DNA from: Hemileia vastatrix
Taxonomy: Eukaryota; Basidiomycota; Pucciniomycetes; Pucciniales; Zaghouaniaceae
Assembly (NCBI GenBank): GCA_030280995.1
Contig: JASXTE010000015.1
Location: 25,104,501 to 25,168,500 of the forward strand
Direction: 5' to 3'
DNA: 64,000 nucleotides
The translations under genes were made by a program, and so were the position numbers. This document shows, in pieces, positions 10,356 through 64,000 of the stretch. The notes beneath the pieces were generated by a model. That model did no database searches and was not told the origin of the DNA. It saw only the letters and a list, made by a program, of their open reading frames with translations. Position 1 is the stretch's first letter; every line of letters starts with the position of its first letter.

Positions 10356-11089
10356 ATTTTTTAACCCACTGGAAACCATGTATATAGAGTGATAGTAATC
10401 ATCTTTTAAATATAACATTATTATTCTTTCTTATAAAAAATTCCAATCAATGTATAAGATAAAAGAAAGCAAAAGAATTAACAATTATAAAATTATTGAG
10501 GATAGAAAAACAGATATATATTTTTGTAAAAATTTAAGACATGATAAACATTTTGATTAAATAAATGTGAAATTTTTTTATGCACAATATATGAACTAGA
10601 AATAAATTAAATTGAATCTCTTCTCAGATACTTACGACAAGATCAAATTAAAGCCTAAAACAAGAATAGAATTAGATTCTTAATTTCAATTTAAAATACC
10701 TGTTTTTCAATAATTATAATTGCTTTATTATTTGCTTAATTCAATCAATGATTAGTATAAAAATGCACATGTGAAAAAAATTATGAAAGTGAACACCATC
10801 CCTCACCAAAAAAGAAACATCATTAAAGGCACTCAATAATCCATAGCCATAGTTAATAAACAAAATGTATACAAAAAATTAAACCATTCAACCAATGTGA
10901 ATTCATTTTCACAAGGATTTTAAGAAATTTTTTTTAAAACTTCACTTATTGTAACAATAATTGAAAATTATTAATCATTAAAAACCAAAAAATCATCAAT
11001 TTATATTTGGTTTTCATACCTTAAAAAAATAAAAGAGGCTTTAATAACATGTAATTGATAAACATACTTCAATAGAATTTAATTATTGT
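10356..11089. other. AT-rich spacer, no gene seen
   Basis: Extremely AT-rich sequence between the transposase stop and the palindrome array. I see no conserved reading frame or repeat. The corresponding interval in copy B is only about 215 bases, so this stretch has either expanded here or been lost there. Confidence 0.4.
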
Positions 11090-20178: not shown

Positions 20179-21455
20179 CTACTTAATGGTCTTTTCCTTT
20201 TTTTTATTAACATGTATATCAGAATCTTTTTCTGTATTTAATTTTTTAATATCTTTAGTAACATTAAATATATAGTAATTCACTAACTTTTTTTTTGTTA
20301 AATCAGTCTTTTCATTGTACTTAGAAAGTTTCATGATAAGAAAATTACATCTTTCTAACTCTTCATTTATATTTAATTACTCAGAAATATCTATTTCAAA
20401 CTCTTGGAGTTTTTTAAATGTATTGAAAAGTCTTTTACTAACTTGAATAGAAGAGCCAATGCAAGTGAATCCACCAATTTCATAACATCATGAAGTGAAA
20501 TGATTAAGAAGGTTTGCTGGCCATAGAATCGCTGTGATTCCATTAGTGGCCTCCATGTCTACTTTGCAAGCTATTTCAGAAAAATGAAGCTCTCCACCTT
20601 TTTTACATTGTTGATTTGAGTCATAAGATTGATGAAGAGAATTTTTCTCAGTCTTTTTAGGCATGAAAAGTCCAAATGTATACCTGCTACAGTCTGAGTC
20701 ACAGTGAGAACTATTCAAAAACCTGTTTCCATTTGAGCCTGTTGTCCAAGTAACATTGCCAGCAAATGGTTCAATTTCTTGATCATCAACAATTTCTCCA
20801 AACCCAGGAATCCCAAGCTTTTGACAGAGTTTTACTGCTTCTTGATACTTAACATTAGATATATTTTGATAAACAAATTTAAAGAATAACTCTATTTGCT
20901 TCATGCAACAATCATACTCTGCCAAATCTAAGGGCTTAGAAGCATATTTACCTATAAAAGTAATTAAAATAATAATAGATTAAAACTATTCATAAATAAA
21001 ACTATATAATACTTACGAATTAATAAAGACTTTTTCCTATCTAAACACCAACCACCAACAAACATATTACCAAATCCACCATCATTTTTATGAGCTTTAT
21101 TTTGTAAAACTCCATGTTCACAATACGAAAAGTCTTTGATGCACTGAATTGCTGCTTCAAGCATTTTTAATCAAATGAGATCTTCAATAGAAAATATTTT
21201 CACTATAACACTTGGAATTGAGGAGTGGATTGGATGGAAAATATAACATCTAGAAATCAAAGTAAAATACCGTTCTGGATTAACTAATTTTTTTACAAAA
21301 CTCCTAGAAAAATATTTTGCCCTCTTTCCATCTGTCTCAATACTGTAATTTTCAACAATAAGTAATGCATTCTTGATGTTTTTTGCACACTTGTTGTTTG
21401 ATTTTTTTCCTCAGTGGTGATTTTTCTTTATAAACAAACTTTGTGAAGCCTGCAT
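20179..21455 (-). pseudogene. TET/JBP-family dioxygenase, copy A, broken
   Basis: TET/JBP enzymes are Fe(II)/2-oxoglutarate dioxygenases that oxidise the methyl group of 5-methylcytosine or thymine in DNA. The last exon (20,951 down to 20,179) carries the HxD iron motif as HCD, GGELHF, and WPANLLNHFTS with the distal His. It aligns with copy B (HLD, GGELMF, WPANQLRHFTS). Directly after HFTS an in-frame TGA stands where copy B has Arg. The frame then continues with IGSSIQVSKRLF, matching copy B's IGSSIQISTRLF. The upstream exon, 21,455 to 21,017, continues N-terminally (DRKKSL near its 3' end) and carries a further TGA and a frame slip at an A-run. A possible earlier small exon near 22,957-23,024 has a good GTAAGT donor. 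The gene is decayed but unambiguous. Confidence 0.75.
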
Positions 21456-28628: not shown

Positions 28629-29338
28629 CTAAATTTCAAGAGAGGGGATTTCTAGCAATTCACCCCTAGATTTCCTGCGGTGATTATTGCTGGTTTCTGA
28701 CTCAGTTGATTGTGGCTCCTGTGTTTGCTCTTCAGTCTATTTATAAATAAGAAAATATAAATAAAAAAAAGAATTGATAAGATAAAAGAAAAAAAACATA
28801 ATTGATTTATATCAGGTTGGTTTATATTTCCATAAGGATCTATTGAAAAGATATCTTGATTTGTGGAAGTGAACTGAGAAGAGGCTTGAGTAGAAGAGGA
28901 AGGAAAAAGATTTCTTTTGAAATCATGTTCAGAGATAGGATCTTCTCCATCCAACATGTTTGCAGGATTAACATCAGCTTGCTCTCCAAAAATCAAATCC
29001 ATCTCTTTAAATTAAGGACATAAAAAATCAATTTTATCATCTATGGATTTGATGCCCTTACTGATATCGAGGTCAGAAATACCAAAACCAGTAGAAGATG
29101 AAAGAGTCTTTGCCTTCTTGTACTTGGCTCAATAATTCTTGAAGCGTTCAGACATCTGTTTTGGTAAAAGGTCTATCCTTCCCTTAGTCTTATTCCATAA
29201 TTTTTTGGCCATTAGAAGATAACCATTAACTTTTGATGTGGGGGGGCGTCCTACTTTAGTTGCATTCTCAGTACCAAAACAAGAATCATGGTTATATTTA
29301 GTTTTTAGCCAGTTGATAAGAATGAGATGATCTTTTTT
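28629..29338 (-). pseudogene. Rust-type Myb/SANT-like DNA-binding protein, relic
   Basis: The minus strand from about 29,338 encodes LILINWLKTKYNHDSCFGT, then GRPPTSKVNGYL, then LLPKQMSERFKNY followed by a TGA where Trp is expected, then AKYKKA and TGFGISDLDI. It continues FLCP, a TAA, FKEMDLIFGEQADVNP, an acidic Ser/Thr-rich stretch, and a probable last exon (28,747 to 28,629) ending SLEI. The spacing of W, K-rich segments and the C-terminal CP...IFG motif is what I recall from a large family of SANT-like proteins in rusts, often derived from Harbinger-type transposons. That assignment is from memory, not a search. Two in-frame stops make it a pseudogene. A run of seven Cs on the minus strand near 29,240 keeps the frame. 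Confidence 0.5.
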
Positions 29339-45219: not shown

Positions 45220-45647
45220 CCCTTGGTTTCTTGTCAATTGTTTGCTCTTCCAGTTAGCTGGCACAAGGAACAAGCCCAGATATAGCTTATTCAGTTAATT
45301 TGTTGGCAAATTTTGCAAGACACCCATCTGAAGATCACTGGAAATCCCTCAAACATCTTGTGGAATATGTTTCAGCAACAGCTCATTCCACTTTCAAGAT
45401 ATTTCCCCCCAATACAAATCTGATGGATAAAGTTGAAGTCTATGCTGACTTAAGTTGGAGTGGGGGTGAAGGGGATAGGGCTTCTCAAGGTCATGTCATT
45501 GGTTTCTGTAATGTTCCAATTAGCTGGAGGGCAAAGCGGCAACAAACAGTGGCACTTTCTACTTCCACAGCAGAATATATGGCTTTTTCATCAGGTACAA
45601 AGACTTGTTTATGGATAAAAACCTTACTTGAAGATTTCATCAACTAT
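45220..45647 (+). pseudogene. Copia RNase H, outer element, cut by transposon copy B
   Basis: Continues the outer Copia: LGFLSIVCSSS, a TAG, GTSPDIAYSVNLLANFARHP, then KHLVEYVSAT, VYADLSWSGGEGDRASQG, WRAKRQQTVALSTSTAEYMA and WIKTLLEDFINY. Copia RNase H should continue for about 60 more residues toward ADxLTK, but the similarity stops exactly at the CACTA terminus at 45,648. The rest should lie beyond the right end of copy B, outside the window. Confidence 0.8.
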
Positions 45648-45750
45648 CACCACAGAAAATTTGGGGGGGTATTGCTAGCAATACCCCTCATTTAAAAATG
45701 TTGGGAAGTGGTTGGAAAGCTGTTGGAAGGCTGTTGGGAGTTCATTGTGA
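45648..45750 (+). repeat. Left terminal and subterminal repeats of copy B
   Basis: The terminal part is 45,648-45,688 with the CACYACA start, a G7 run and a perfect 22-base palindrome. The tandem units GTTGGGAAGTG, GTTGGAAAGCT, GTTGGAAGGCT and GTTGGGAGTTC follow at about 45,699-45,744. Their ~11-base period equals that in the MITEs although the sequence differs, as expected if each transposase lineage has its own binding site. The three bases before the terminus are TAT. Confidence 0.75.
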
Positions 45751-46542
45751 AACCAGATTTAAATTAATTGGACAAAGATTTGGTAATCAGTTAGACCTAG
45801 GTTCAACCAAACTCAATCACAGGTTTCTTGGAGCTTGGTGATTACTTTGATTTTGAGCTAAGCGCAGATTGAGCAAAGCTTGAACATATCACTTAACATA
45901 TCATAATATTCACTTTCCCATCTTGTGGAAAGCAAAATTTGATATTCGTTCTAAGAATATCTACATATATTTTCTTGCCAAGTTGGTAACAGAAGGTTAA
46001 ACTGTAGTATCTCAATTATTACACTAGACTACATAGATATTTGATAAAACATACAATTCAAATCAATTTTAATATTATTGAGATCACCATAAGTGTCTAT
46101 CCAAAGACTTACAAAAAGTATGTTAATATCAAGACATCGTTCTAGGTAGTAGTTTCAATTTGGATTTTGAACTGACATCTAAAGCATTTTACTATTAGAT
46201 AGAAACATAAATAAGTGTAATAAGAGTGAAATTATTCTATTTTGTGATTATAATGTAACAATAAAGCACATTTTTATTGAGAAAATTTTTCTTCCTCCAC
46301 AAACCAAAATTTACTCTATAGGCTCAAGATTTATTTTTAAGCCATATTATTCATTTCAGTTATCATTGATTTACTTTCAATATTTATTAAAAAGATAATA
46401 ATAATACATGTGAAAGAATTATGAGCTTAGCATAGCATATGCTAAAAAGTTATTTTGTCGTTTTATTCAAAACTGATTATTCATTTTTTGCTTCAATTCA
46501 TCTTTTAACAACCACTATCTTCAGATACTATTCTTACTTAAT
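45751..46542. other. Upstream region of the SNF2 gene, copy B
   Basis: AT-rich with no coding feature; it should contain the SNF2 promoter. A pyrimidine-rich stretch around 46,485-46,535 (TTTTGCTTCAATTCATC, ACCACTATCTTCAG) precedes the start codon, as is common in fungal promoters. Confidence 0.35.
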
Positions 46543-48971
46543 ATGTCAAGTCTCAGATGTGTTGGAAAGTTCTCAATAACAATTGATCAAATTTATATGA
46601 ATGTAATTTCAAGATTTCAAAACTCACCGACACCCACGATTTTACAGCAAGGCCATTCGAATGTTCATATTTTTGGACTATTTGAAGAAAGAAAACCAAC
46701 CCTTGTCAGTAATCTTTCTCAAGTGCAGAGTCAGCACATTGGAGCACTATTGGGTGACATTGGCTCTGGATCTCGCCATTTAAACCAAAGAAGTGCCTTG
46801 AATCCTATGAAGCCTTTCTATTTTCATGCTTACTTGGTTCCAGTTTTTGGTAATCAGTATCAACTTTGGGGATGCCTCTTTTCTTCAAGTACACTAATCA
46901 GTCTTGCTAAAGAAGCATTTTCTTCTGCTCAAATTGATTTATGTCCAATCCTGAACTACGACTCCACTATCTTTTTTAATATCCCGCATGTAATTTTTGA
47001 AGGCTCTTTCCAAATATCTCAGAGTACTCAAGATTGGAAAGCTGATCAACTTATCCGAGGAATCAAAACAGTTCTCAAAACACATCAACTTCAAGCAATA
47101 AATTTTATGATTTACAATGAACAAATGTTAAAGGAAAAGTTGGATATCATGTGGAGGCACCAGGACAACCATTGGCTTAGAACTGGATTCGATGACTATA
47201 AAGATCAGTTTCCTAACAATCAATTAACACCTGAAGGAAACGGGTCAATACTTGCTGATGATATGGGTTTGGGAAAGACACTTTAAACTCTTTCTCTTAT
47301 AAGTGCAACTCAAGGTGAAGCAAGACAATTCCAGGTATCAGAAAATCAAGAAGGTATTAATCGGAGTTCAGCCACACTGATTATATGCCCCCTGGCAACA
47401 CTATCGAATTGGATCAATGAAATAAGTGTGCACTTTGAAGATAATGCGCTTCCTTTCAAGGTTCTTTATGGGAAGGATTGTCAAAATACTAATGTCAATG
47501 AGCTACAGGACACTGCTATTGTTTTAACGACCTATGAAACAGCTAGCCCAACGATGTCAAAAAATCAAAGCCAAAAAAAGATACCGGTGACTCAAATGCT
47601 CTTTTGGTATAGAGTTGTTTTAGATGAAGCTCAGTTAGTGCCCATTTCTATATCTAAAACTTAAAACTTAATTTTTATAATCAATTTTTATAAATATTCT
47701 TTTAGTTACATAAAAAATCATTACTTGCAGAGGGCTCAAACAATATTTGACTTGGAATCCCAACACCGACTATGCTTGACTGGAACTCCACTTCAGAACA
47801 GGCCCACTGACCTTCAAAGTCTCATATTTTTTCTTAGAATCAAAAAGTGGCAAGAAGACTGGTTATGGAAGAATTTCCTTTTTCCAGGTTTGCAAAAAGG
47901 AAAGGCTAATTCTATTAAATCAATCAATCACTTAATGAAAGTCATAAGCCTACTTAGAACAAAGGATGCAATTTTGTCTCTTCCAAAAAAGATTCAAAGG
48001 GGGATATTGGTTCAATTAGCAGATCCATGGAGGTCTAAACTTGATGTGCTTCAAGAAGGATTCACTGAGCGATATGGGCCCTCCAGAAGCACTGAATTCC
48101 CTTGGGACTCATCTGAGTTTCTAAGAGAGCTGACGATTTTAAGAAAATTCTGCAACCATCCAATCTACGAAAATCTGGATGAAACTCCAACTTTTGATTT
48201 CACCTGGCAGCATTCCGCAAAGATTTGTCATCTTATAGGCCACTTAAAAAACTTTTTGTCTGGTGAAAGGGGTATAAATCTTCCAAAAGCTGTTATATTC
48301 TCCAACTTTGCAGACTTTTTGCAGATGTAAGTGATTCTATAATGAATTGTTTTACAAAATTGTGTTGGCTTATTAAAAACAATTTTCTAATATTTCAAAA
48401 TAGAATAAAAATGGCTTTAGATGACCACAATATTAGGTATACCCAGCTTACGGGTGAACTCAGCAGGACAAAGCGAGACAAAAATATGCATGAATTCCAT
48501 TTTAATAAAAATTGCCAAGTTTTGGTTGGAACGATTCAGGCTGCAGGAGTGGGTATAGATCTCAGGTGTGCTCAAAATGTATATATAATGGTGAGCTCAA
48601 TGTCTTTTATTTCATATTAAGAACAAAAATATTAAATTTTTTATATGTTCAATGTTGAAATAGGAGCCAAATTGGAATCCAGCAGTTGAGCAACAGGCTG
48701 TTGATTGGCTGTATAGAATGGGGCAGCAAAATGAAGTAAATGTTTTGAATTATTTTGTACAAGGAAGTATAGAATTCAGCATGTATAAGATTCAAAGGAA
48801 AAAAATGGAGCTAACAATGTAAGCCAAATTTCATTTCTATAAATTTTAATGATAATAGTAATCATTAAAATTATGTTTTTGTTTTCAAGGCTAAGTGTCC
48901 CAAACAGTGGAAATGAGGAGTATGAGTGTGCAAACCTATTATTAAGGGAGTTTGTCAATCACTCACATTAG
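46543..48971 (+). CDS. SNF2-family (Rad5/HLTF-like) helicase, copy B; one premature stop
   Basis: Five exons (46,543-47,633; 47,733-48,326; 48,404-48,590; 48,664-48,818; 48,890-48,971) with GT-AG introns give 702 residues. Motifs in order are ADDMGLGKTL (I, ATP binding), LIICPLATLSNW (Ia), VVLDEAQ (II, a DEAQ box), LCLTGTPLQNRPTDL (III), QAAGVGIDLRCAQNVYIM (V) and NPAVEQQAVDWLYRMGQQNEV (VI). These place it with the Rad5/Rad16/HLTF branch of SNF2 translocases. The N-terminal ~200 residues are not recognised, and there is no RING finger. The only defect is TAA at 47,284-47,286 directly after GKTL, where the family usually has Gln; a CAA to TAA change would explain it. It ends tail to tail with gene Y. 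Possible role: opening chromatin or modified DNA for the element; inferred. Confidence 0.85.
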
Positions 48972-50074
48972 AGGAAGAAAGAATTTCAAGGAGAGCAGGT
49001 AAATTTATGGGATTTTGAGGATTTAAAAGTCTGAGTTGTTGAGGATTTAGAGATGCAAGATATAAGGGAGAATAACAGTCATTTGGCAAACCCCGGGGGA
49101 CATGAGAAGGATTAAGGTTAGGGGATAATGTTGAAACCAAACTTATTCTTTTGTACAAGGCCAAGTCCTTTAGCACACTTCCAGAGTAGGTTGAATTATC
49201 TTGAATATCAAAGTGTTGTTGGTCAAGATATTGTGCAACTTTAGAAAAATCTTCAGACCTCCATTGCATTAAGATACGTCTTAACGATCCATCATTATCA
49301 ATTTTGGTGTCTGAAAAACACTTGATGTTTGTGAAAAGGTTGTGATAAGTTTCACAATGTGGAAGTTGTTTAAGAAGTTTAGTTCGGTTAACTGAATTCT
49401 AAGAATCTTTGTTATTTTAAATAAAGGTCATAAATAAAAACGGTTGAAAAAAAGGGGAATTTCATACTTTTTTTTATTCTATATTTATGCTTTCTCACTT
49501 TGATTATTTCTTGAGAGCTATGAGAATCCTTCCCAAGTCTTAATCTATCAGCATGACCTAAAAACCAACGGTGAATAACTCCTATTTGATTTGAGAAGCT
49601 TATTTGATTTGAGTCAATTGGATATGCAATCAAATTATTGGTTTTTAAGGCATTGTCCCAGTGTTTAATGAGAATATTTGCCAAGACCTGGTTCCATTTG
49701 TCAAACCAATCTAGGTTCCAAGCGAAAGTTGATCCTGGGAAACCCCACATGTGAAGGTGCTCAATAAAAGATTCATGGAAAATTGGTGGAAACTTTTCCG
49801 AAACCGCTGAATTTGATTCTGGATGAGGTAGTTCAAAGGCAATGTTGCAAGAATTCCTGTCGAATGATGAAAATCTGTCTAATTGCTCTTCAGTAGGGTT
49901 TTATTTCCATCCATTTGATTCTGGTGACATATCCAAAAGTGAACGACAAAAATTGTGTATAGATCTACAAAAGTGAGAATTGAATGGAGGCAAAGTCTCA
50001 TTAAAAATTCTATTAAGTGTTCTTGTGTTTGTGGGCAGGTTTCCATGAGGAAAGTAAGAGCTACTAGGGTTCAT
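48955..50074 (-). CDS. Gene Y, copy B: transposon-associated protein of unknown function
   Basis: It starts at the ATG at 50,074 (MNPSSSYFPHGNLPTNTR) and runs to the stop at 48,955. One stop interrupts the frame (TAA at 49,901-49,903), and there is probably one intron near 49,400-49,470. Landmarks are FHESFIEHLHMWGFPG, WNLDWFDKWNQVLANILIKH, then HRWFLGHADRLRLGKDS and a Lys/Arg-rich segment. The C-terminal part has WRSEDFSKVAQYLDQQ, GLPNDCYSPLYLASL and PQQLRLLN. I know no domain for it. Proteins of this pattern accompany Tnp2 transposases in basidiomycetes, from memory, and it may be an accessory DNA-binding protein. Its 3' end overlaps SNF2 by 17 bases, as in copy A, and its 5' end faces Tnp2. 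Confidence 0.65.
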
Positions 50075-51150
50075 AAATAATTAGATTAAGAAAGTGTTCA
50101 ATTAAATTAAACAAAGAGGAAGGATAAATTGTTGAGCTCCAAAACTTTATGATAAAAGTTGATTTAAGGAGAAATATCACAAAAATTAAGAATAAGAAAT
50201 ATTTCAACTTTATGGAATTATAATATGCATAAATTATATTTTTATATGCAACTTGAACTCAAAAGGAATGGTATAAAATAAAGAGAATGATTATGTGATA
50301 AAAGCAGACTCATTTAAGAAACGGATTTTTTTTTCTTTTCAAAAAATTGTTCCACAAAAATAATTTGTTAAATGTGAGGCTATGTTCATTTTTTGATTAC
50401 CAAAAAATTATTTTTGGTCCAATATGATAGTAATACATATTCTATTGAGTAATTTTTGTTCAACTTGAATAAATAGACTAGAGTGTCACTTCATTACATT
50501 TATGTATGAAAAGTTATACAAGGTTTCAGCTTTTATGTAATTCTTTAAGGTTTACACTTTTGTAGCATCTATTATTTGAGTATTTTTGATTTTTTCTTTA
50601 TAGAAAATTCTACCTAGTACAGACCAATTTTCAAAGTGAAAGAAATATGTTTGTGATTGTTTTTTACAAAATATTAACCTTATTTTTGGGTTTAACTTTG
50701 ATTTTTGGAGTAATTTTTTAAATAATTACGTTAAAAATATGGATTACTTTTCTTATAGTCCATAACTAAGAATTTTTATCAAAATCAAATAATTATAGGG
50801 TAGTTAGATATAACTCAGAAGGCATTTGATAGAAAAATAATTAAGATGCTTGTGTGTACAACAGAATTTTTTCTATGATAGAAAATATTCTGATAAACAT
50901 GCATGCATTGTTGTACAAATGCAGAGAGTATACAGAATACAAATAAAGTAGACTGCATAACTTTAAATTAATATATAATTTATCTGATTAAAGATTAAAC
51001 ATTTAAACTTAAATAATTTCAACACATATTCCATCATATTCTTTTGATAAAAAAATGTAGCTTATATTAGCTAGTGTCTTTCAAAAAAAGGAATACCTTC
51101 AATCGGTAACTTCGAATAGCTAACTTATTCCTACAATTATCACAATTACA
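50075..51150. other. Divergent intergenic region between gene Y and Tnp2, copy B
   Basis: 1,076 bases without coding potential, the shared upstream region of two divergent genes. It matches the copy A interval in length once the MITE there is removed. Short stretches are still similar, such as GATAAACATGCATGCA here and GATAAACATGTATGCA in copy A, so some sites may be under selection. Confidence 0.5.
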
Positions 51151-54100
51151 ATGCCTCCATTTTTTCATGTATGTCAATGTCAAGATCTTGGATGTGTCAA
51201 TAGAAAGTATCAAACTTCTTCTGGGTCCTTTGAAGTTGGTATGGCTTTCAAAAGCTCTAATTCTTATGCAAAACATCAAGAGGAAAGAAATAGGAAGGCC
51301 CAGATGATTATTTCTTCCAACAATCCACTTAACATTGGAAGTTCCAGCTCCACAGAAACAGTAATCTGTATATCTATAGTTCAATGTGAGAATAAAAGTC
51401 TTTATGATGTTTCAATGATTTATTACATAGGGGTAGTTGCTATTGGGGGCAGAAGTATCTTCAACAGTCTCTAGAAACTCAAATCTTGGGGAACGGTATA
51501 GCCAAATAATTATGTGGCAGGCAGAAAAGCTTTCTCTTATTCATCATTTGAGCAAAGAAGGTTGTACTCAATTTTTGGATGAAGAAATTAAGAAGCTCAA
51601 ACTTCTAGGTGATAGTGGAATACTGGATTCTGATAGCATTGTCCGCCTGGTCCCATGCTCGATAGATACAGTTTTTAGTCGATTAAAGCTCAATCAATCA
51701 TTTTTCACTAAAACATGCTGTCCTAAATGCTTTGCTCTTTATGAGTATAACTCTGAATCTCAACCATCTATACTATGTTGCAATCAACCGTTTCTTTCAT
51801 CATCAAAGCGCTATTTAAAAATGTTTGGAGCAGGACAAATTGCAGTTAAATTTGATGAAAGGCTGTATTTGATGGAGGAACATCAAGAACATGTAAAATA
51901 CTTATCTCTTAAAACATTTCATCACCATTCTTTTATCGACTGGCTTAAGGAAAAGATCAAACTGTTCAAATTTGAGCTTCTGATTGAGAAGAAAACCCCT
52001 GTGGCAGAACGTGTAGAGTGTGATTTGATGAAGGATGTTTGTGATGGTTCAATTTGGAAAAACTTTCCCATAACCACTCCAGCTCTGGATAGAAATGATG
52101 ATGAATATAAGATAACTTCAGGCAACTTAATGTTTACTTTATATGTTGACTGGTTTAGGCCTGGTGGAAATAGGATTGGAGGTCATCAGAAGTCTGTAGG
52201 CAATATTATGATGGTGTGTATGAACCTACCTCAAGAAGATAGATACAAAATGGAAAATCTTTTTTTGTATGCTATTATACCTGGACCAACAGAACCCACA
52301 AGTGAACAGCTTAATCACCTTCTAAAACCACTGGTTAATGATCTACAAACTCTATGGGATGGTATATTGATTGAAAAGACACATCTTTATCCACGAGGCC
52401 GGAAATTAAGAGTTGCATTGTTCTCTTTGATAGGTGACATTCCTGCAATACGAAAATTGGCTGGCTTTTTGAGTCACTCTGCAAAAATGTTCTGCTCATT
52501 CTGTAATATCTCTAAAGATGAAATTAGTGAAAAGAATGTGGGAAATTTTTCATTACGGAATCATGAGGATCATATGTGCTGGGCAACAAAGTGGAAAAAT
52601 TCTAAGTCACATTGGGAGCGTGTATCAATTGTTCAAAATCATGGGGTACGATGGAGTGAGCTGAATAACCTTGAATATTGGCGTCCAACTGAATATTGCT
52701 CAATTGATGTTATGCATTCACATATGCTTGGCAACCTAAAAGATCACAGTCTAAGCTATTTTCAAATCCAAAATGCAGCAAAAGATCTAGAAAGAAAGCT
52801 GGAAAAGGATAAAAATTGGCATGTAAGAGAAGAAGATGATGATTTCTTTTCTGATACTTCACTGCACAAACATTCGAAAAAACGTAGAAGTAGCTTAAGC
52901 ACCACAAATAATGATGATGATGATACAGGACACACGAGACAGCACAAGCGGCAAAGACGTACGAGTTCAAGACAGTCATCAAGTCATCATGGACTAGATA
53001 ATGAAGGATTGGGAACAAATTGATCAAGAAGCCAGAGTAGGTCATCCAGCTCCAAATTTATTCCTACATATAGCGATTTGGCCTCAATACAGTCTCACAG
53101 CAGTGACATTAGGAATTCATTGTATAACTTAAGGCAAAGAAGCATTAGCATATCACAGAGTGAAGGATCTCACTCATCAAATGAGACAGCTAGAGATGAA
53201 GAAAATAAAAGGAAAGGTAAGGAGAAAGAAAATGAAGGTAGTAGTAATCCACGAATCACAGCAGCAGAGCTACAGGTTGTATGGAAGATGATTGATCAAG
53301 TAAGAAGACCTTCCTGGCTAACACGAGTTCCAAAATCAGTAGGATCTAAAAAGGAAGGATCCCTCAAGGCAGCAGAATGGCACATGCTGTATACTCTCTA
53401 CTTCCCTTTGTCACTTATACCCCTTTGGTTTGAAAAATTTAAAGAATCTGAATCTTCAGCTTCCTCAGCTGATAAACCAAGAGAATATTATCTTCTCAAG
53501 TCACTTGTAACATTATGCTCGATCAACAATTTTTTGACATTAAAAAATATACAGACTAATGAGCTTAAAGATCTAGATCAATTTCTGTTAGAGTATCGTG
53601 AGTGCCTTGAAGAGGGTTGGAAGAATATTAATGCAAAGCCAAATCTGCATATCACTCAACATTATCCTGAAATGATAAAGCGTCTTGGTCCACCATCAGG
53701 TACAGCTACTTGGTCTGGAGAGCGGGTGAATCATATATTATCTGAAATTCCAAACAATCACCATCCACGTATGTAATGTTTGTAAGCAATGATTTAAAAA
53801 CTCAGCTGTGCTAATTTATTAATATTTACCACAGGAGAGATACTGCTAACAATGCTCAAACATTGGTATCGGAATTCTAGGGTATTAGATCTTGGTGAAG
53901 CTGAAGATAATGATCGATGTGAGACTAAAAAAATCCATATTGATCTCGATAAACAAAACAAATGGATCCATCTAAGTATGGCATTATTTACTAAATGGGT
54001 AAGGGCACGAATGGGAAAAGAAACTTCAAGACGGGCTTTGACACCATCGGAGAAAAGTGGGGATTGGGTAGTTGAAAATGTAGCAAGCATATTGATACAT

Positions 54101-56604
54101 GGAAAGAGGTTTACTAGTTACCATCTTCACATTGCTAATTCAAAAATTGAATTCTACTATGGAAAAGATAGCCAGTTTGTGCAAATTGATGATCTTTTCA
54201 GATCAAAGGAAGAGAATGATAAAATATATTTAATAGTAAGTCCTTTCAAAAAGCTCCGTCCAGAAGAAACATCAAAGGATCCCTATGAGCTTTTCCCACA
54301 AGTGCATTGTCGGTTAGTAAGAGTAGCCAAAGCAACTCAAATTGTGATTAAGAAAGATGCAATAATTGGACATGCAGCTACTGTCGAGCACAAAAAAGGA
54401 ATGTTTGGAATCAAAGACGAGGTTGTCACTGCCATTGGACTGCAGACAGTAGTGAGTGAAAAAATTAATCAAATTTATTTTCTGTTGACTAACATCTTTG
54501 TGTTAATTTGGGATTGGGGAAATTTGTAGGATTGGTGATATTTGTAAATGGTGAAAGAAATAATTCAATGCTCGATTAAAGAATGCAATGCATCCAACTT
54601 ACCTTATCATAAATCAGTGAACAATTACTTTGGTTGCTTTTATTGCGAGAGAACCCATGCTTTCAATGAGTCATTTTTATCTTAAATGTAAGAATGAAAG
54701 AAATAAAATCATGATAATGAGAAATATGATAAAATTTTTACTTAATGAATGATCTTCTTGCTCATTCATCTACTATAAATAGTTTGACCTTCCAACTTTA
54801 GCTGATAGCTATATATTATTCACTTTATTTTTCGACAAGAGAACATACACGTTTACAAGACTATAATACATAGTATCTTTTTTTACTTTAGCTTTTATAG
54901 GTAAAAATTTTAACAACTGATTATTTTTATTTTATTTTATTTTATTACAGTTCATTATGGATGATAATTTTGAAGGGATGTCTGTTGACCCAACCGATTC
55001 TGATTGTTTTCCCCCTCAACATACTAATACTGGAAATACTCCTCCACCACCCTCTGCTGATCCACCTCCAGATGCATCTCAATCTGTACCACCTAATCCT
55101 AACCCACCACCTAATCCCAATCCAGGCGAAGAGTCTCATTCAGAACCGAGAAATTTTAATCCCAATCATCCTTCTGCTTCTGAAAGTGCTGATCAGCTAG
55201 GAAGAGATTGGGCTAGTGAAGTATTGAGGGAATTTTTCGGAGACCAATCATCATCTGCTCAGCCTAACCAAGGAGCAAGCACAAGTGGAGCAGGTAAGTC
55301 AAATTTGTAGTGTATTATTTTATTGAAAAAAAACCAATTTAATTAACTTATTTGAATTGTTAGTGAATCCCTCAATCATTATGGGTATCAGTGATTACCA
55401 CAGACTCAATTCAGCAGAGTCTCATGAGCGAGAACGGGGGTTAAGGGCTGTAAGAGGCTTAGTTAGAAGGAATGATGTTCCCAGTAGCTCGGACAGTCTA
55501 AATAGAAATATTTACCACTTTCTGAAGTATTGTCTTGGGGGACCAACACAAATAACAAAATATCCTGCCAGCCCAACACCTTTGGAGATTGAAAATTGGA
55601 AAGCTTGGAACCAATTCAAACTGTCCTAACCCAAGTCTAATCTTCTAACCGTGCCAATTCTGCAGCTGATCAACAATTTCTGATAACCAATTCTATAGAC
55701 TTCTTGCGATCCAAAATTCGACTACCCGAATTTTTCCAGCACCTGAGCCTCGAGGACTAAAAGGAGGAGCACCGATCCCACTTTCTGTCAAAAGAAACTT
55801 AGAGCGTGAATTGCAAGAAAAAGGTTTTTGGAAATTTGCGTTTGATTGGACTTGCCATGATTTTTCAGAATCAACTTGGAATCAAGTCATGGGAAGCATA
55901 GTATGCGACCACTGTACCAGATGGCTCACCACCTTGAATACAATCGATCAGTCAAAGCTTCAGTTCACTCAATGTGTTATTGAGAAGTGGGTAGTTAATA
56001 AGGGGAAGGAGATGATAAGGTTTTTTGGGCAAGAAGAGGAAAGGGTAGTAAGAGAAAAGATCGAAAAGAGGGCAAGGGCACAAGTAAAACGTTATCGGAC
56101 CAAGGTAAGTTTTTTATTTTACTTTGCTTTTTGTTATTATGAAGCTGATTTAGTTGGAATTCAGATTGCTAGTGCACGCTACAAGTTAGCAAGAGATCTC
56201 TGCAGTGATGTGCCAGGTTTTGTTGTGCTTTTTCATGATACTAGGTGCATCTCTGATATCGAGGAAGGCCCAGCACCAGCCCCAACTGCACCTATCCGAG
56301 CTATTCCTGGATGGCGAAATCCTGAACTCAATGATTTGTTTAAAAAATGGATAAGATGATTTAGGACATAGCCCATACACCAGCTCAAAGAAAATCAGCA
56401 TTAAAAACATATTCACGGTCATCAGAAAGGACAGTTGCACAAAATGGTATATTCAATGTTCCTAAATACCTCCCCAAGAATTGCTATTCAGCAACATTTT
56501 TGCAAGGATTATCTGTGAATGAACGTGAGTCACTTGGGGTTGGAGCTGATATTGATCTGGTAAAGATTCGGGAATCAATTAATAGAGCATCAACATCATC
56601 ATAA
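51151..56604 (+). CDS. Tnp2-type CACTA transposase, copy B; lightly damaged
   Basis: About 1,550 codons in six exons: 51,151-51,360; 51,437-53,768; 53,836-54,448; 54,951-55,293; 55,364-56,104; 56,165-56,604. The N terminus is MPPFFHVCQCQDLGC. Candidate catalytic features are D in YVDWFRPGGN (52,148), then GDIPA, the C(2)C motif CSFC (52,493-52,504), and D in SIDVMHSHMLGN (52,706). These correspond to the D, C(2)C and D positions described for CACTA transposases. A low-complexity Ser/Arg region (about 52,840-53,250) and a Pro-rich exon (54,951-55,293) follow. Defects: TGA at 53,021-53,023 within the Arg/Ser stretch (CGA likely), a small deletion with frameshift near 55,620-55,750, and stops near 56,359. 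It should cut and paste elements with matching termini if repaired or expressed elsewhere. Confidence 0.9.
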
Positions 56605-56820
56605 CTTAGGTATAACGGTGATCTTCTGTGTAATATAGCTATCTTATATTGAATTTTATGTATTCTGTTTTTTTTCAAAGCAGCTTGGTAAATGTTATAA
56701 AGTGATATTGAGAGAGAGTAACATTTTATTTAAGAAAAACAAATAATGTATGAGATATAAAAATGTATTTTCAACAAATTGATGGTCCATACCTCTTTAT
56801 GTCACATTTATGTATCCATA
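56605..56820. other. Short 3' flank of Tnp2, copy B
   Basis: AT-rich spacer between the transposase stop and the palindrome array, with no visible gene. Confidence 0.4.
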
Positions 56821-58757
56821 TTAATTTCAATTCAATTTAATGTTGACCAATACATAGTGAATACATGCTATGCCACTTATACTTTCCAGGCATTGCTACC
56901 ATTAAATATGCCAGTATCAAAAATTAATTTCGATCGAAATTAATGAGCATGATAATCATGAATTTCTGGAGTCAACTGCTTATTTTTATGCATGGTGCCT
57001 TGCCAACATTAATTTCGATCGAAATTACTTTTGATACTGGCATATTGCATGGTGTCTATTCCTGGAAAGTGTAAGTGGCATAATGTGTATTCATTACGTA
57101 TTGGTCAACATTAATTTCAATAGAATTTAATATTGACATTTTCATATTGAACCCAAACCAGCAAACGACCCAAAAAATTCTTCATAAAACTGCTCATTAA
57201 TTTCGATCGAAATTAGTGAGCACCATATACATATTGAATGGTAGTTATATCTGGTGTGTGTAAGTTGTAAAGCTTGTGTTCAATGTTTATTGGTCAACAT
57301 TAATTTTGATTGAAATTAATATTAATGTGTAAATGATATTTACATGCTCAATATGCATTGTAATGTGTTTACTTAAGAATAGAGTGCCCTACTTTTCATC
57401 TTACATAAAAATGCTTGTTGGCATGTCAAATTCAATTTTTATTAAAATTAATGTTGACATGTTACCATGCATAACAGTAAGCAACTGACTGAATAAATTG
57501 ATGATAATCATGAACCTTAATTTTGATCGAAATTAATGTTGCCAAGTGCAGATTGAAAAAAAGCTATGCCACTTACACTAGCCAGGCATATTTACTATTT
57601 ATTATGTATTGGTCAACATTAATTTTTATAGAAATTAATATGGATATGTAAATTTTATATTTACTCTCAACATGTATAGTAAATTTCAATACTTAAAAAT
57701 ACTTGCTGTCCTTTACATGTCATGTAAAAAAGCATTATATCATTTCAACATTAATTTTGATCAAAATTAATGTTGGCATGCCATTATGCATTGAAACAAC
57801 TAACTGACTGAAAAAGTTCATGATCAAAATGCTCATTAATTTTGATCAAAATTAATGTTGACCAATACATATTGAATATAAGTAATCTCCGCTTACTCAG
57901 ACCAGATATAACTACCATTCAATATGTATATGGTCAGCCTTAATTTCAATTGAAATTAATGGGAAGTTTTATGAAGAATCCTCTGGGTTGTTTTCTGGCT
58001 TGGGTTCAATATGCAAATGTCAACATTAAATTCGATCGAAATTAATGTTGACCAATACATAATGAATACACACTATGCCACTTACACTTTCCAAGCATAT
58101 ATACATGCAATATGCCAGTATCAAAAGTAATTTCGATCGAAATTAATGTTAGCAAAGCACCATGCATAAAAATAAGCAGTTGACTCCAGAAATTCATGAT
58201 TATCATGCTCATTAATTTCGATCGAAATTAATTTTTGATACTGGCATATTTAATGGTAGCTATGCTTGGCAAGTGTAAGTGGCATAGCATGTATTCATTA
58301 TGTATTAGTCAACATTAATTTCAATTGAAATTAATATGGACATGGACTATGCATAAAATTCCTATAAGTATAGGTAAGATAAGCAGTTAGATAAACTGGT
58401 TTGATCAAGTACACCATATAAAAATTGATGTTTTAATGCCTTGGTTAATTTCGATCAAAATTAATTTTAAGCCATGCATGTTGAATTTTATCTATGTCTG
58501 TGTAGTCCATGTGAAATGGCTTGTATTCAATATGCAGGGGTCTATATTAATTTCGATCGAAATTATGAGGTTCATTGCCTCATAAATTTGATGGTTTCTG
58601 TCAGTGTTTCATGCATGGTGCCATATGATACTTGTTGATTCCTATCAAAATTAATTTCAACACCAATATATTGAATACAAACCATGGCACTTACAGTACT
58701 TGGTCATAGCTAAAATTCAATATGCTAGTCTCAAAATTAATTTCGATAGAAATTAAT
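56821..58757. repeat. Palindrome array B: about 20 palindromes, spacers in both orientations
   Basis: Repeated palindrome ATTAATTTCGATCGAAAT (extended by TAAT in the best copies), starting near 56821, 56923, 57008, 57110, 57196, 57299, 57431, 57516, 57618, 57750, 57834, 57939, 58025, 58127, 58211, 58314, 58445, 58545, 58633 and 58735. Steps alternate between about 85 and 102 bases, with three steps of about 132. Spacers recur reversed: ATGAATTTCTGGAGTCAACT (56,958) returns as its complement near 58,175. The spacer with ATACTGGCATATTGCATGG (57,031) is reversed in the one ending ATATGCCAGTATCAAA (56,905), and the long spacer containing AAGTGTAAGTGGCATA recurs in both directions. Seven copies keep the intact CGATCG core. 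The array occupies the same place in the element as array A, but the palindrome is unrelated. Confidence 0.95.
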
Positions 58758-59791
58758 CAGGATCCATGAAGTTTATCAATAGTGTATGAGTTAAGTTTCA
58801 AGTCATATGTTTCATCATTTTCTTGCACCCATTTCTAGGTTATCTCAACAATTTTTTTCAAGTTTTATTATATTAATCAAAACTGTGGTAAGTTGTGAAA
58901 AATTAGCTAATCCAAATCTCAAATTGAATATTAATATTTTAATAATTTTGAATGTTGCTTAAGGTATTTCATTGGGTGATTCATAATAATATTTTATCAA
59001 CTTAGTAGTCCTATAACTTTTGAAAAGTAACAATATTGGTATAGTTAGGGACAACAATGCAATATCTTGTGCAGACTAAGATATATTGCAAAATAAAACT
59101 ATTCAATTTTTTTCCCCCCTTAGTTGTATCCAAGTTTATCAAAGGTTTGGTCATGGTGCCCACACCCTAGCCTGACACTCCTCCTGTCACTTAAAAAACA
59201 AATTCTTATCTTAAATTCTAATGTTACCAATTTTATATTTATAATTCATTTCTTGTTTGATGAGGCATATCAGTATATATTTGAATCTCGCATTGTCATC
59301 TGAAAGTAAATTTAACAAATATTCATAAAGGATTATCCTTTTTTTTCATATAATATACTAATTAAGTGTATCTCCATTGTTTAGGAGTAAATTCTAATTT
59401 AAAAAATTTTGTATTTACCCATGGCAATTTGCATATGGGATATACATTTGTTATTATTTGTTTTTCGCACTAAAAGTCCCCAAAGAATTAATAGTATTTT
59501 CTGTTAGCTACATCAAATTTCGCTTCAATATAAACAGATTGTGATTTAGCATGTTACTCAGTTTACCCCACTATGAATAATACATGTTAAAAAAAGCTCA
59601 AATAATATAAAATCCCCCTCTTTATGTTTTCTGTTTCTTTCATCCTCACTTTAATTTTAATCTTATTCAATTTTTTATCCTATTAAATTATCAACTTCAA
59701 TTTTCTAGAATAGAGTTTCTTATAATTATTCATCATATTACATCATAATTTTTTGATATCAAATACTTTTTTTTAATATTCATTAATCAAT
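58758..59791. other. AT-rich region upstream of gene X, copy B
   Basis: No gene recognised. A pyrimidine-rich run (TTTCTGTTTCTTTCATCCTC near 59,630) precedes the gene X start, as in fungal promoters. Confidence 0.35.
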
Positions 59792-62216
59792 ATGTCTAGT
59801 ATACAAAATCCTACACCTCCACTTTGTATGTATATCATGTTCCTCTCTCTTAATTTATATATTTCACTTATGTTCTATATCTTTTTTTTTCAAAAATTTG
59901 ATTTTCCAGCACCCGAATGTGTTTCATCCCACTCTCTGATTGATACTTGCTTTGAAGCTTTTGAGCTTGCACCATGTCTGCCACATGGCATGGCACCTAA
60001 CCCTCCTGTACTTAGCAATGAGAGTCAGGAAATAACGAGAGTTCAGTATCGCAACTTACTTGAATTGGCTAGAGATAAAACAGAAGAGCTTTTCAAGATC
60101 CTTAACAATAATCCTTCTCCTTCATATTTATCTAACCCTTGTAATGACTTACTCCAATATGTGAAAAGCCTTGAAAAATGTATGTTCTTCACCTTTTTTG
60201 TCTCCTTTTAAATTAGTAGATAAGATTATTAATATTTTTTTTTCTTCATATATATTTGTAGATTATGAGGAGGGTATGATTCCTCCTGATGAAATCATTG
60301 TCATTAGGGATGATGATGAGACAGATGAACCATCAGATTTAACTCATGCTTCAACTTCTAAGGAAAATCTTGAAACACCTGTTATCGGCTCCAAGAAAAA
60401 GAGATTATCCCAAGGCTCCTCTTTTGTTCAACGTATTAAACCGGCTTCTTCTAATGAATTTTCTGATGTATCAAATAATAAATCTCAAAAAAAAGCAAAG
60501 GTTTTGATAATGAGTATATTCTTGTTTCTTTTTTTTATTGTTATTCTTTTATCTTTAAAATTCTATCATATATCTCTTTTATTGCTTACATATTGTACTT
60601 TTTATCTTTCTTTTGATATTTTGTACCAGAAACTCACCTGCTGTAGATTGTTCCATCCATAAACGCCCTATCCCTGATGAAGATGATGAAAAGAGCGATG
60701 AAAATAGCGATGATCAACTGTCAGAATATGAAGCTATGCTTGTTCATCAAAAAAAGCAAAGTTTAAAATCTTCTTCAAGACATGTTGATATGTTTGATAA
60801 AGATGATGATTCAAACAGCTCATCACCGAATTCCTTCATTTCTAAGAAGCAATACCCATCACCTCCTAAATTACCTACTTTGACCACTTTGAAAGCTTCT
60901 CTACCAATGAAATCAACTCCAATCAAGATATCAAAAAAACCTCTAACTTATTCACCCTCAGTTCTAAAAGAATCTGATTTTCAGGAGGAATTCTGTAAAA
61001 TTCATAATTTTTATAAACGTAGAATCAGATGGCAAAGGTCCTCAGGTTGTGGTTGGAAATTGTTACTCTCCTCGAATTATGCTCTTCTACTTCTTCCCAA
61101 GAACCCATGTCAAATATTCCAATGTTTACTTTTCATTGGGAAAAATCTTGTGGAGAAGATTGGCTTTCAAAACTTACTGAGTTATGTAAGTTACCATAAT
61201 TTTTAGTCTTGACTTTTGTTCTTTTACTTATTTTTTTTTTCCTTTTGTAGCAAATATTTTTTTATAGATTGATAGCTCACAGCTATGGGTACTCCATAAT
61301 ATTGATTTCAAAAAAATGGAAGATTTATGTGATCCTTATGGTTTAAATACTGAAATTCTTTCCTCAACAAAGAAAAAGGATCACCCTGAATCCAATCTTA
61401 TCCTAATGCTCATGAGATTAATGATCCCAAGTGACCACTGCCGTTCTTCATGGGTATCTCTTATATCATATTCACTTTATCTGACTGCACATGAATTCAG
61501 CCAGCTTCCATCACATCAAAACATTAACTCAGATTGTCCAATTGAACGTGGTCTTCAGCTTCTAGCTCACCTTTCAAATCTGAAGAGTCCGATTTCTGAT
61601 GGCTTAGAAGTTGGTCCCACTGCACTTCAAACCCGTGATATATCAATGTCAACTCTTCTTCAAATCAGCAATATTATCATTGATATAATTATGTCAATTA
61701 TCATTCTTAAGTCAAAATATTGTGCTGCAACAATATCAAGTGGCAAGACTAGTGAAGCTCAACAATCAAGTGAGAAAAATGAAAATACTGAACTGACTAT
61801 AATGAGAGAGAAACAAAATGCTGCACTAAACAAAATAAATTCTGAATACTCCCACCACCGATATCAATCTTTCACATTCTATATAATCGATGGTGTCCGT
61901 GGTTATTTCTGAGCTCTCAAGATCATAGATTGGCTTCAGCAGCTGATTGCTTGGAGGTAATATCAGAAGTTAAGTTTCTTAATTTACATGGAAAAAAAAT
62001 CATTTGATGGAAGAAATAATTTGGAAAAATTTAAATAACTATATTTTAACATTAATAAAACCTTTTATAGGCAAGTGTGATCCATTTCCTTTAAAATTTG
62101 ATACCCCAAGTCCTCCGGGAATTGCTAGGGCTATTTCTGCAGATTTTCTTAATCACTGGAGCTCCATTCAGCCAGTATCACCTTTTTTTGCTAAACATAG
62201 CCTTTCAATAAATTAA
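59792..62216 (+). CDS. Gene X, copy B: unknown acidic, serine-rich protein; frameshifted
   Basis: It starts MSSIQNPTPPL at 59,792 with a short first exon. Exon 2 (59,910-60,179) holds NPPVLSNESQEITRVQYRNL and a helical segment ending SLEKC. Exon 3 has the acidic IPPDEIIVIRDDDETDEP followed by a basic KKKRLSQGSSF. The next exon has PDEDDEKSDENSDDQLSEYE and a Ser/Pro/Lys-rich linker. A one-base deletion in an A-run near 61,030 shifts the frame before KVLRLWLEIVTLLE. Downstream blocks are DHPESNLILMLMRLM, SDCPIERGLQLLAHLSNLK and, after a break near 61,910, IWKNLNNYILTLIKPFIG to the stop at 62,214-62,216. No domain is recognised. Acidic plus basic low-complexity segments suggest a nuclear, perhaps chromatin- or transposase-binding, protein; inferred. 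Conservation with copy A shows that it is a genuine element gene. Confidence 0.65.
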
Positions 62217-63015
62217 TATTCCAACATGTAAATAGATAAAGTTCTGTCTATATGATATATCTTGTATAATTCAAGTTATTTTCCTTCAAATACGTCAAAA
62301 ATGTGACCATCTTTGAAATTTATTAAGTAACCTTTGACATGATTTTCTAAATTAATTATTAAAAAAAATTATTGTAAGTCCAGCAATAACAAAGATTTTA
62401 AAATCTACTTATATGATTTCAAATACTTGTATTAAATTCTTAAATATTTTATTGTTTATATAAAAATATGATAACTGCTCTAGTTTTGTTACTTTACCTT
62501 TAATATTATATAATCTATTAATTATTACAAATATTTTCGTTGATTGTAACATTTTTAATCAGAAGTAGAACAATTTAAATAATTAAATGAGTACATTCTT
62601 AAAAAAATACATTTTAATCTATTATTGATTCAAAATTCTTTCTTCAACTCTTAATTATTAACTTTTTTATTAATAAGCCTGTTTGACCTAAAATACTATA
62701 CAGTTAATTTGGTAGCATTAAAAGCACATTTTTATGGCTAATATATTTCAAATTCTTTATTATAGTTTTTTTTATTATAGAACCTTTGCTACCAATTTAA
62801 TAAAAATGACATTTAAAGATTTCACAACTTATATATTTCCTCAAAAGTAAATCAAATTTTCTTATAATATTATGAAAAAAAATTATTTTATTTCACAAAT
62901 AAAAAAAATAGATAATACTATAATTATCAAAACTGAAAATGTTACAGCTACTCCCAGTATTTATCATGTTTAAATTTGCATTAAGTTGTGTATATATAAT
63001 ATAAATTTTTAATAT
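62217..63015. other. AT-rich convergent gap, copy B
   Basis: Separates the 3' ends of gene X and the dioxygenase. No gene or clear repeat; the sequence is extremely AT-rich and probably holds both polyadenylation regions. Confidence 0.4.
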
Positions 63016-64000
63016 TTATATATCTAGATTTTTTAGATTTGTCTTAACATTAGATAAATAATACTTTGCTGATTCTATTTCTTCCTCTATTAAGTCATCT
63101 CTTTTCAAAAAATCTCTTAAAGCACTATTCAAATATTCTAACCTAAATTTTTCTTTTTTAATTTCTAAGTATTCTGAAATATCAATATCAAAAACATTAA
63201 GCTTTTTTATAGCATGAAAAAGTCTAGTGCTGATTTGAATAGAAGAACCTATCCTAGTGAAGCCAGGAATTTCATGACATCTTGAGGTAAAATGCCTTAG
63301 TTGATTGGCAGGCCATAATGTCACTGTTATTCCATTAGTTGCTTCAAAGTTGATTTTACTTCGAATTTTGGGAAACATAAGTTCTCCACCTATTTGTTGT
63401 GGTTGGGTCTTATCATACTTCATATGAATGGTGTTTTTTTCTGTATCTTTAGGAAAAAATATTCCTAAAGTATACTCACTTGCATCCTTATCAAGATGAA
63501 CCTCATTAGAGAACCCATTACCATTCCCTCCAGATGTCCAAGTTAAATTACTAGCAAATGGTACACCCTCTTCTTCACTAGAAACTTTTGAAAATCCAGG
63601 AATACCAAGTTTTGCACAAAGATTAGTTGCCTCATTGTACTTTACATATGATATTTTTTTAAAAAAATATTCAAAGTACATTGCAATCCTCTTCATTCGT
63701 TTTTTATATTCATCCGTTTTTACAATATCATCAGTGTATTCATCTGCAAGGAAAAGCATTCAAAAATTCAGTATTTAAATTAAAAAAAGTGATACTTACG
63801 AATATATAAAGATTTCTTTCTATCTAAAATAAAGCCACCACCAAACATTTTTCCAAAACAACCAGCTCTTCGATGATAACCATTATTTTTAATTTCATGT
63901 TCGCAGTAAGAAAGATCCTTAATGCATTGCACCGTAGCTTTTAACATATCTAGTTCTTTGAGCTCATGAATTTCAAAAGTCTGCACAAGAACATTAGGTA
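63016..64000 (-). CDS. TET/JBP-family DNA base dioxygenase, copy B (5' end outside window)
   Basis: Two visible exons on the minus strand, from beyond 64,000 to about 63,786 and from about 63,744 to 63,016, are joined by a short GTAAGT...TTGCAG intron. Landmarks are DRKKSLYI at the exon junction, CAKLGIPGF, TWTSGGNGNGFSNEV, HLDKD (HxD iron ligands, 63,490-63,498), GGELMFPKI, WPANQLRHFTS with the likely distal His, and IGSSIQISTRLF with a candidate 2-oxoglutarate-binding Arg. The final ~60 residues are charged and helical. No stop or frameshift is visible, making this the best-preserved gene of the element. TET/JBP enzymes oxidise 5-methylcytosine or thymine. In other basidiomycetes lineage-specific TET/JBP genes are known to travel with KDZ transposons; here the partner is a CACTA/Tnp2 transposase. 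Confidence 0.75.

What the first reader, a model, noticed from the sequence alone, without database searches (positions are those of the whole stretch)
45648..64000. A CACTA/Tnp2 transposon that carries its own TET/JBP dioxygenase and SNF2 helicase
Two diverged copies in one window share the order SNF2, Y, Tnp2, palindrome array, X, TET/JBP. Published work links basidiomycete TET/JBP expansions to KDZ transposons (Iyer and colleagues). I know of no described CACTA element with this cargo. The dioxygenase is the only gene in copy B without a visible lesion, which suggests it is kept longest. A mobile element that encodes a 5-methylcytosine oxidase plus a chromatin remodeller could remove silencing from itself.
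Basis: partly seen in the sequence, partly recalled or inferred. Interest (0 to 1): 0.92.

Follow-up and report, generated by a model that had tools for sequence, protein, structure and literature searches.

The report
CACTA transposon carrying TET and SNF2
A rust-fungus genome carries hundreds of copies of a 27-28 kb jumping gene that brings along both a DNA-demethylation-type enzyme and a chromatin-remodelling-type motor, probably to fight its own silencing; transposons of this kind with the first enzyme are already published, the pairing with the second I did not find described.

Summary
Copy B is a complete CACTA/EnSpm element: left end 45,648, right end 9,669 bp beyond the window, 28,022 bp, CAC..GTG ends, TAT/TAT target duplication, inserted in a Copia gene. 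Copy A runs from -881 to 28,681 with ATT/ATT. Both pairs of ends enclose SNF2, Tnp2 and TET, so the linkage is not accidental. The 748-Mb host genome (unnamed; a rust by protein relatives) holds 728 exact left ends, 798 exact right ends and 752 exact TET words; 79 of 100 listed left ends have a same-strand TET word inside, against 3 outside and 0 on the opposite strand. Six genes show dN/dS 0.26-0.35 between A and B. Copies carry strong TCG/CpG transition decay. However, TET-bearing EnSpm/CACTA elements of rusts were published in 2025 (PMC12730594), against 'no described CACTA element with this cargo', and TET is not constrained more than the other genes. What I did not find in print is the conserved SNF2+TET pair, a split counterpart of JBP2. 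Demethylation of the element itself is inferred, not shown.

The parts
45645..45647 (.). target-site duplication TAT of copy B (partner TAT lies just after window-equivalent 73,669)
   Evidence: leaving the element out brings the two parts of a Copia RNase H gene together in one frame, with a stop codon at the junction
45648..45687 (+). left terminal inverted repeat of copy B, CACCACAGAAAATTTGGGGGGG followed by the perfect palindrome 45,666-45,687 (they overlap)
   Evidence: 39 of 41 positions identical to the reverse complement of the right end; 728 exact copies in the genome, reversed control 0
46543..48972 (+). SNF2-family ATPase gene, five exons (46543-47633, 47706-48326, 48404-48590, 48664-48818, 48890-48972, window-equivalent positions in an uninterrupted copy); interrupted in B itself
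   Evidence: 711-codon frame in L024; Pfam SNF2-rel_dom E 1.2e-57 and Helicase_C E 2.6e-17, no RING
48958..50083 (-). gene Y, unknown protein
   Evidence: conserved with A; dN/dS 0.28; no Pfam match above cut-off for the two pieces tried
51124..54529 (+). Tnp2/EnSpm transposase gene; 781-codon open frame in 7 of 18 sampled copies, interrupted in B
   Evidence: Transposase_21 E 1.2e-15; relatives in Puccinia and Austropuccinia psidii; open frames
54921..56601 (+). gene Y2, unknown protein; a 48-residue C-terminal stretch resembles that of Y
56806..58763 (.). array of palindromic repeats in B (core ATTAATTTCGATCGAAATTAAT)
59777..62213 (+). gene X, unknown protein
   Evidence: conserved with A; dN/dS 0.26
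63016..64000 (-). TET/JBP-type dioxygenase gene; exon 2 is 63016-63743, exon 1 spans 63,800-64,223 and so runs past the window
   Evidence: Pfam PF20515 E 2.6e-22; HxD and distal H invariant between A and B; 383 codons
1..28681 (+). copy A, older element of a related lineage (starts 882 bp before the window)
   Evidence: ends and ATT/ATT duplication; colinear with B
20236..21215 (-). TET gene of copy A, with stops
11086..13321 (.). palindromic repeat array of copy A, at the same place in the gene order as in B but with a different unit
28642..28681 (-). right terminal inverted repeat of copy A, followed by ATT

Best explanation
It is an autonomous, recently amplified CACTA/EnSpm (Tnp2) DNA transposon of a rust fungus, typically about 27 kb, that moves as one unit with six genes: SNF2 ATPase, Y, Tnp2, Y2, X and a TET/JBP dioxygenase. 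Shown: ends, target duplications, gene content, copy number, purifying selection on all six genes, and TCG/CpG decay of copies. Inferred: Tnp2 with Y and/or Y2 makes the cut-and-paste machinery; the host methylates new copies at CpG, above all TCG; the SNF2 motor opens or slides nucleosomes on the element and the dioxygenase oxidises 5mC there, so that fresh copies stay expressed long enough to transpose, while the resident copies are in the end methylated and deaminated. The pair works like a split JBP2 (TET/JBP hydroxylase plus SWI2/SNF2 domain in one protein).
For: B ends, TIRs and TSD, with the two parts of the interrupted Copia gene in one frame; A ends and TSD. 18 of 20 sampled TET loci carry left end, SNF2, Y and Tnp2 at about 98%. 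79 of 100 listed left ends have the TET word 10-40 kb inside, 71 of them near the distance seen in B; 27 of 27 SNF2 exons have it, 25 at 14-18.4 kb and two at 27.7 and 35.2 kb. dN/dS 0.26-0.35 for six genes. Uninterrupted SNF2 with Walker A, DEAH and motif VI; 147 of 150 scored TET hits without internal stop. Transitions at TCG 11.9%, other CpG 6.3%, non-CpG C 0.26%. JBP2 parallel: PMC11065753, passages. Anti-silencing already proposed for TET+ transposons: PMC12730594.
Against: No activity, expression or methylation data. Copies bearing an open TET still decay at CpG, so protection is not evident. The 20 loci came from the 150 best-scoring TET hits, which favours intact copies; 21 of 100 left ends had no exact TET word inside and 7 of 63 elements with both ends lacked it, although a mutated word would also be missed. 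SNF2 proteins also act in repair and replication. The TET structure model failed (mean pLDDT 39.4), TET found no relatives at E <= 1e-3 in the protein database, and the substrate is unknown; CMD1-type or thymine chemistry is not excluded.
Confidence: 0.58

Rival explanations
1. SNF2 and TET serve transposition or repair, not anti-silencing: the RAD5-like motor helps repair of the donor gap or strand exchange, and the oxidised base marks element DNA for the transposase or for repair.
For: Best solved relative of SNF2 is RAD5; all six genes are about equally constrained; copies still decay at CpG.
Against: RING, which RAD5-type proteins listed carry (PF00097, PF13923), is absent, so the RAD5 repair role is not simply inherited. 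TET+ elements of superfamilies with unrelated transposases share related TET genes (PMC12730594), which fits a transposase-independent role better.
Confidence: 0.22
2. The dioxygenase makes another modified base (as CMD1 or JBP do) that shields element DNA from a host system rather than demethylating it.
For: PMC12730594 states that another activity on cytosine or thymine cannot be excluded for PU-type enzymes; JBP1/JBP2 hydroxylate thymine (PMC11065753, passages).
Against: CcTET, a relative of the AG-type enzymes, oxidises 5mC (PMC12730594); the CpG decay here points to 5mC as the host mark.
Confidence: 0.12
3. SNF2 and TET are passengers or host-useful genes that happen to lie in the element.
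For: CACTA elements are known to capture host genes (recalled).
Against: Same gene order in two lineages, dS 0.73-1.75 over the six genes and dN/dS 0.26 (SNF2) and 0.31 (TET); 27 of 27 SNF2 exons have a TET word downstream; 752 exact TET words in the genome.
Confidence: 0.06
4. Accidental adjacency or segmental duplication, not one mobile unit.
For: Two copies in one 64-kb window.
Against: Different insertion sites and duplications (TAT, ATT), interrupted Copia gene, dispersed copies with shared ends, controls 3 and 0, duplications in 9 of 10.
Confidence: 0.01

Closest known systems
TET+ EnSpm (CACTA) families of Pucciniales (Kojima 2025, PMC12730594)
   Same: CAC..GTG termini, 3-bp duplications, EnSpm-type transposase, TET/JBP gene inside the ends, rust hosts
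   Different: The main text does not mention SNF2 (0 occurrences); its Table S1 and Data S1 were not available here, so the published families may or may not carry it. Element length and copy number there are not known to me.
TET+ Dileera, Kyakuja, Zisupton, hAT7, IS3EU, PHISTA, ESTA, Helitron and Plavaka elements of fungi (PMC12730594; Iyer et al. 2014 recalled only)
   Same: Transposon-borne TET/JBP gene
   Different: Other transposase lineages and target duplications; TET+ IS3EU carries an alpha-kinase gene besides
JBP2 of kinetoplastids (PMC11065753, passages)
   Same: TET/JBP-type hydroxylase domain paired with a SWI2/SNF2 domain
   Different: One polypeptide, acts on thymine, cellular gene; here two genes on opposite strands of a transposon
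RAD5/HLTF-type SNF2 proteins
   Same: Among the nearest SNF2 relatives outside rusts
   Different: No RING domain in the element protein; 711 aa
AcademH and KolobokH helicase-bearing transposons (named in PMC10799480, passages)
   Same: DNA transposon carrying a helicase
   Different: Other superfamilies; TET not mentioned in the passages seen

Membership tests
CACTA/EnSpm DNA transposon | CAC..GTG termini with terminal inverted repeats | tested here: met
   Left and right ends of B match at 39 of 41 positions; exact 40-base ends 728 and 798 times. The first five bases are CACCA, not CACTA.
CACTA/EnSpm DNA transposon | 3-bp target-site duplication | tested here: met
   TAT, ATT, 9 of 10 further elements; 14 of 16 in all
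CACTA/EnSpm DNA transposon | Tnp2 (Transposase_21) transposase | tested here: met
   E 1.2e-15, 57.7 bits against a cut-off of 28.6
CACTA/EnSpm DNA transposon | DDE triad with C(2)C and H(3-4)H motifs | not tested
   Residues not mapped
TET/JBP dioxygenase | Tet-like 2OG-Fe(II) oxygenase domain | tested here: met
   PF20515, 80.3 bits in B and 66.2 in A, cut-off 27
TET/JBP dioxygenase | HxD and distal H for iron | tested here: met
   H88, D90 and H156 of the 63016-63759 frame are invariant between A and B; their assignment as the iron ligands is by motif, read by eye
TET/JBP dioxygenase | fold by structure prediction | tested here: inconclusive
   3-row alignment, mean pLDDT 39.4
TET/JBP dioxygenase | oxidation of 5mC | not testable with these tools
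   needs biochemistry
PU-type TET/JBP of rust transposons | place in the tree of PU-type domains | not tested
   reference sequences not available here
SNF2 ATPase | both helicase lobes with Walker A, DEAH and motif VI | tested here: met
   (motifs read by eye)
RAD5/HLTF | RING domain | tested here: not met
   no RING match
JBP2 | both domains in one protein | tested here: not met
   separate genes on opposite strands

The most novel reading that the evidence does not exclude
The SNF2 and TET genes form a transposon-borne two-part anti-silencing module, a split JBP2, that has travelled together since before lineages A and B parted, lets the element outrun TCG methylation and deamination, carried it to 700-odd copies, and accounts for part of the SNF2 and TET family expansions of rust proteomes.
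Probability: 0.35. Interest if true: 0.8.

Novelty: new variant of a known kind. Interest (0 to 1): 0.6.

Why it matters
If the pair acts as inferred, this is a mobile element that brings both a chromatin motor and a methyl-cytosine oxidase to its own rescue, in the same combination that kinetoplastids hold in JBP2. It also offers a simple reading for a published observation: SNF2 (PF00176) is listed among protein families enriched in wheat rusts (log2 ratio 2.56, PMC5295586) under transcription factor regulation, and the 32 best relatives of the element's SNF2 are all Puccinia proteins (120 of 6948 matches listed). Counting such genes as host regulators would be wrong if they are transposon cargo; whether those Puccinia genes lie in transposons was not tested here. 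Hundreds of copies, some with open and some with broken SNF2 or Tnp2, make a natural test of whether these genes protect a transposon in cis or in trans.

Tried and rejected
Tried without result: TET relatives in the protein database (263 candidates, none at E <= 1e-3); TET, Tnp2 and SNF2 pieces in viral contigs (no relative confirmed); TET against solved structures (one match at E 0.8, an epimerase); TET structure prediction (poor, so no fold search was run). Pfam for pieces of Y, Y2 and X: nothing above cut-off. Comparing the left end of B with the right part of A for inverted repeats failed because the lineages differ; the true ends came. A right end near 25.2 kb for copy A, which I first considered from repeats there, was rejected once 28,681 was found. 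The role of the palindrome arrays was left open. Considered and rejected: segmental duplication (different duplications); TET as the longest-kept gene.

Full report
What was checked. The window is C67:25,104,501-25,168,500 of a 748-Mb genome in 791 contigs. This places it among the rusts. The two copies are colinear at 65-72% DNA identity, and Pfam confirms SNF2, Tnp2 and a Tet-like dioxygenase.

Ends. The DNA right of the window (L009) holds the mirror image of the left end: 39 of 41 positions agree. Copy B spans 45,648-73,669 (28,022 bp) with TAT on both sides. Leaving it out brings two parts of a Copia RNase H gene together in one frame (..LLEDFINY, a stop codon, then GPIHLYCDNQTAVKAGK). 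Copy A spans -881 to 28,681 with ATT on both sides. SNF2, Y, Tnp2, Y2, X and TET lie inside the ends in B; in A their matches lie inside as well.

Family size and linkage. Exact 40-base words occur 728 times for the left end, 798 for the right end and 752 for TET, with reversed controls at 0. Only the first places are listed, so linkage was counted on those. Of the 100 listed left ends, 79 have a same-strand TET word 10-40 kb inside and 71 lie within 4 kb of the distance in B; on the outer side 3 do, and on the opposite strand 0. From the other side, 78 of 96 TET words (those beyond the reach of the left-end list dropped) have an exact left end at 10-40 kb. Of 90 left ends (10 beyond the reach of the right-end list were dropped), 63 pair with a right end within 45 kb, 41 of them at 26.8-27.2 kb, and 56 of the 63 contain the same-strand TET word, 7 do not. 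Of 27 SNF2 exons on the covered contigs (from the 150 best-scoring; six on C26 beyond the list were dropped), 27 have the TET word downstream, 25 at 14-18.4 kb and two at 27.7 and 35.2 kb, and 24 have the exact left end. Eighteen of 20 loci taken from the 150 best TET hits carry the whole left part at about 98% identity; one is cut short and one lacks it. As a rough estimate, 70% of 728 elements at 27 kb would be about 14 Mb, near 2% of the genome (inference).

Target duplications. With copies B, A, L012/L032, L014/L051 and L025/L045 (read with a one-base shift) matching and L018/L038 not, 14 of 16 match. In one search the remaining rows were not counted: their right stretch held no end of this family with BLAST support. 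Typical elements are about 1 kb shorter than B, which is one reason the stretches missed.

Genes. SNF2: in one copy an uninterrupted five-exon gene of 711 codons with GLGKT, DEAH, LTGTPLQN and QAVDRLYRMGQ (motifs read by eye); SNF2-rel_dom and Helicase_C, no RING; the closest solved structure by sequence is RAD5. In 18 copies, the Tnp2 781-codon frame is open in 7; the 395-codon first SNF2 frame is open in 10, with two more open at 388 (L015) and 416 codons (L028, shifted by an insertion). TET: two exons, up to 383 codons in B; the start is uncertain because exon 1 is 424 bases in B but 425-426 in the three other copies in which it could be read, where the frame from that ATG breaks early (eight loci tried, four not readable by the marker words). 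HxD and the distal H are invariant between A and B. Among 150 scored TET hits, 147 have no internal stop, but that list is the best-scoring part. Pieces of Y, Y2 and X have no Pfam assignment; Y and Y2 share a C-terminal stretch (E 5e-6 for that single comparison).

Selection. Between A and B the dN/dS is 0.26 SNF2, 0.28 Y, 0.35 Tnp2, 0.32 Y2, 0.26 X, 0.31 TET, upper bootstrap bounds 0.33-0.46, dS 0.73-1.75. Both cargo genes have therefore been kept by selection over the time that separates the lineages, about as much as the transposase. This does not single out TET. Stops in A (3-8 per gene) were excluded from the count, and dS near or above 1 is poorly measured.

Host pressure. In 18 partial copies (B and 17 of the 18 loci with a left end; L028 was left out for an insertion), transitions reach 11.9% at TCG, 6.3% at other CpG and 0.26% at other C. 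PMC12730594 recounts TCG hypermutation in Pucciniomycotina repeats. CpG observed/expected is 0.35 in the window part of B, 0.20 in the window part of A and 0.06 between them. The element is thus under the very pressure that TET would oppose, and is not immune to it.

Mechanism. Shown: a mobile unit with these ends and genes, amplified, under selection, decaying at CpG. Inferred: SNF2 gives access and TET oxidises 5mC, giving a window of expression for transposition. The nearest worked-out parallel is JBP2, which joins a hydroxylase and a SWI2/SNF2 domain and is, in a proposed model, responsible for de novo base J synthesis (PMC11065753, passages). Rivals are listed in their field.

What is known. 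Kojima 2025 (PMC12730594; I read the abstract, introduction, results 3.1-3.2.1 and 3.4, the first part of the discussion, the legends and passages) describes TET+ EnSpm with CAC..GTG and 3-bp duplications in rusts, and proposes escape from methylation. SNF2 is not in its main text. Searches for SNF2 with EnSpm and Puccinia, with tnp2, and with Plavaka found no paper in the open-licence library; searches with broader words gave capped listings, in which I saw no title naming this pair. Iyer et al. 2014 is not held, so what it says is recalled. PMC5295586 (one section read) lists SNF2 as enriched in wheat rusts. PMC12210899 and PMC10799480 were read in passages only.

Verdict. A confirmed, large, recently amplified CACTA element; new variant of a known kind; the SNF2+TET pair is the part worth following.

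Noticed in passing
28320-28580 and 4098-4346: Two small CACTA-type elements without genes (261 and 249 bp, about 89% alike), ends CACCACACAATATGGGG / CACTACGCAATATAGGGG in the first, palindrome GGACTTGCTAGCAAGTCC in both, both flanked by ACT; both are nested inside copy A, one of them about 100 bp from its right end.
   Followed up: partly
56806-58763 (B) and 11086-13321 (A): Palindromic repeat arrays at the same place in the gene order in both lineages but with different repeat units (A: 479-bp period, core AAGTTTGGCCAAACTT; B: core ATTTCGATCGAAAT). The position is kept while the sequence is not; role unknown.
   Followed up: partly
23373-23492 (A) and L009:2110-2647 (window-equivalent 66110-66647, B): Clusters of distinct perfect hairpins (3 and 5 with stems of 9 or more; means of 20 shuffles 0.1 and 0), with shared motifs such as AAGTCGCT..AGCGACTT in both copies.
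   Followed up: partly
48958-49398 and 56365-56601: Proteins Y and Y2, on opposite strands, share a C-terminal 48-residue stretch (29% identity, E 5e-6).
   Followed up: partly
L009:1-223 (TET exon 1): TET exon-1 length differs by one or two bases among four copies (424-426), so the start codon or the assembly there is uncertain.
   Followed up: partly
L011-L029 element copies: Besides CpG transitions, non-CpG C positions show more transversions (156) than transitions (69) among 18 copies; not explained.
   Followed up: no
39035-44089: Large inverted repeat (741-nt arms, 85%) with a further direct copy of 94% identity (39554-39853 / 40112-40411), beside the Copia fragment that copy B interrupts.
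   Followed up: no
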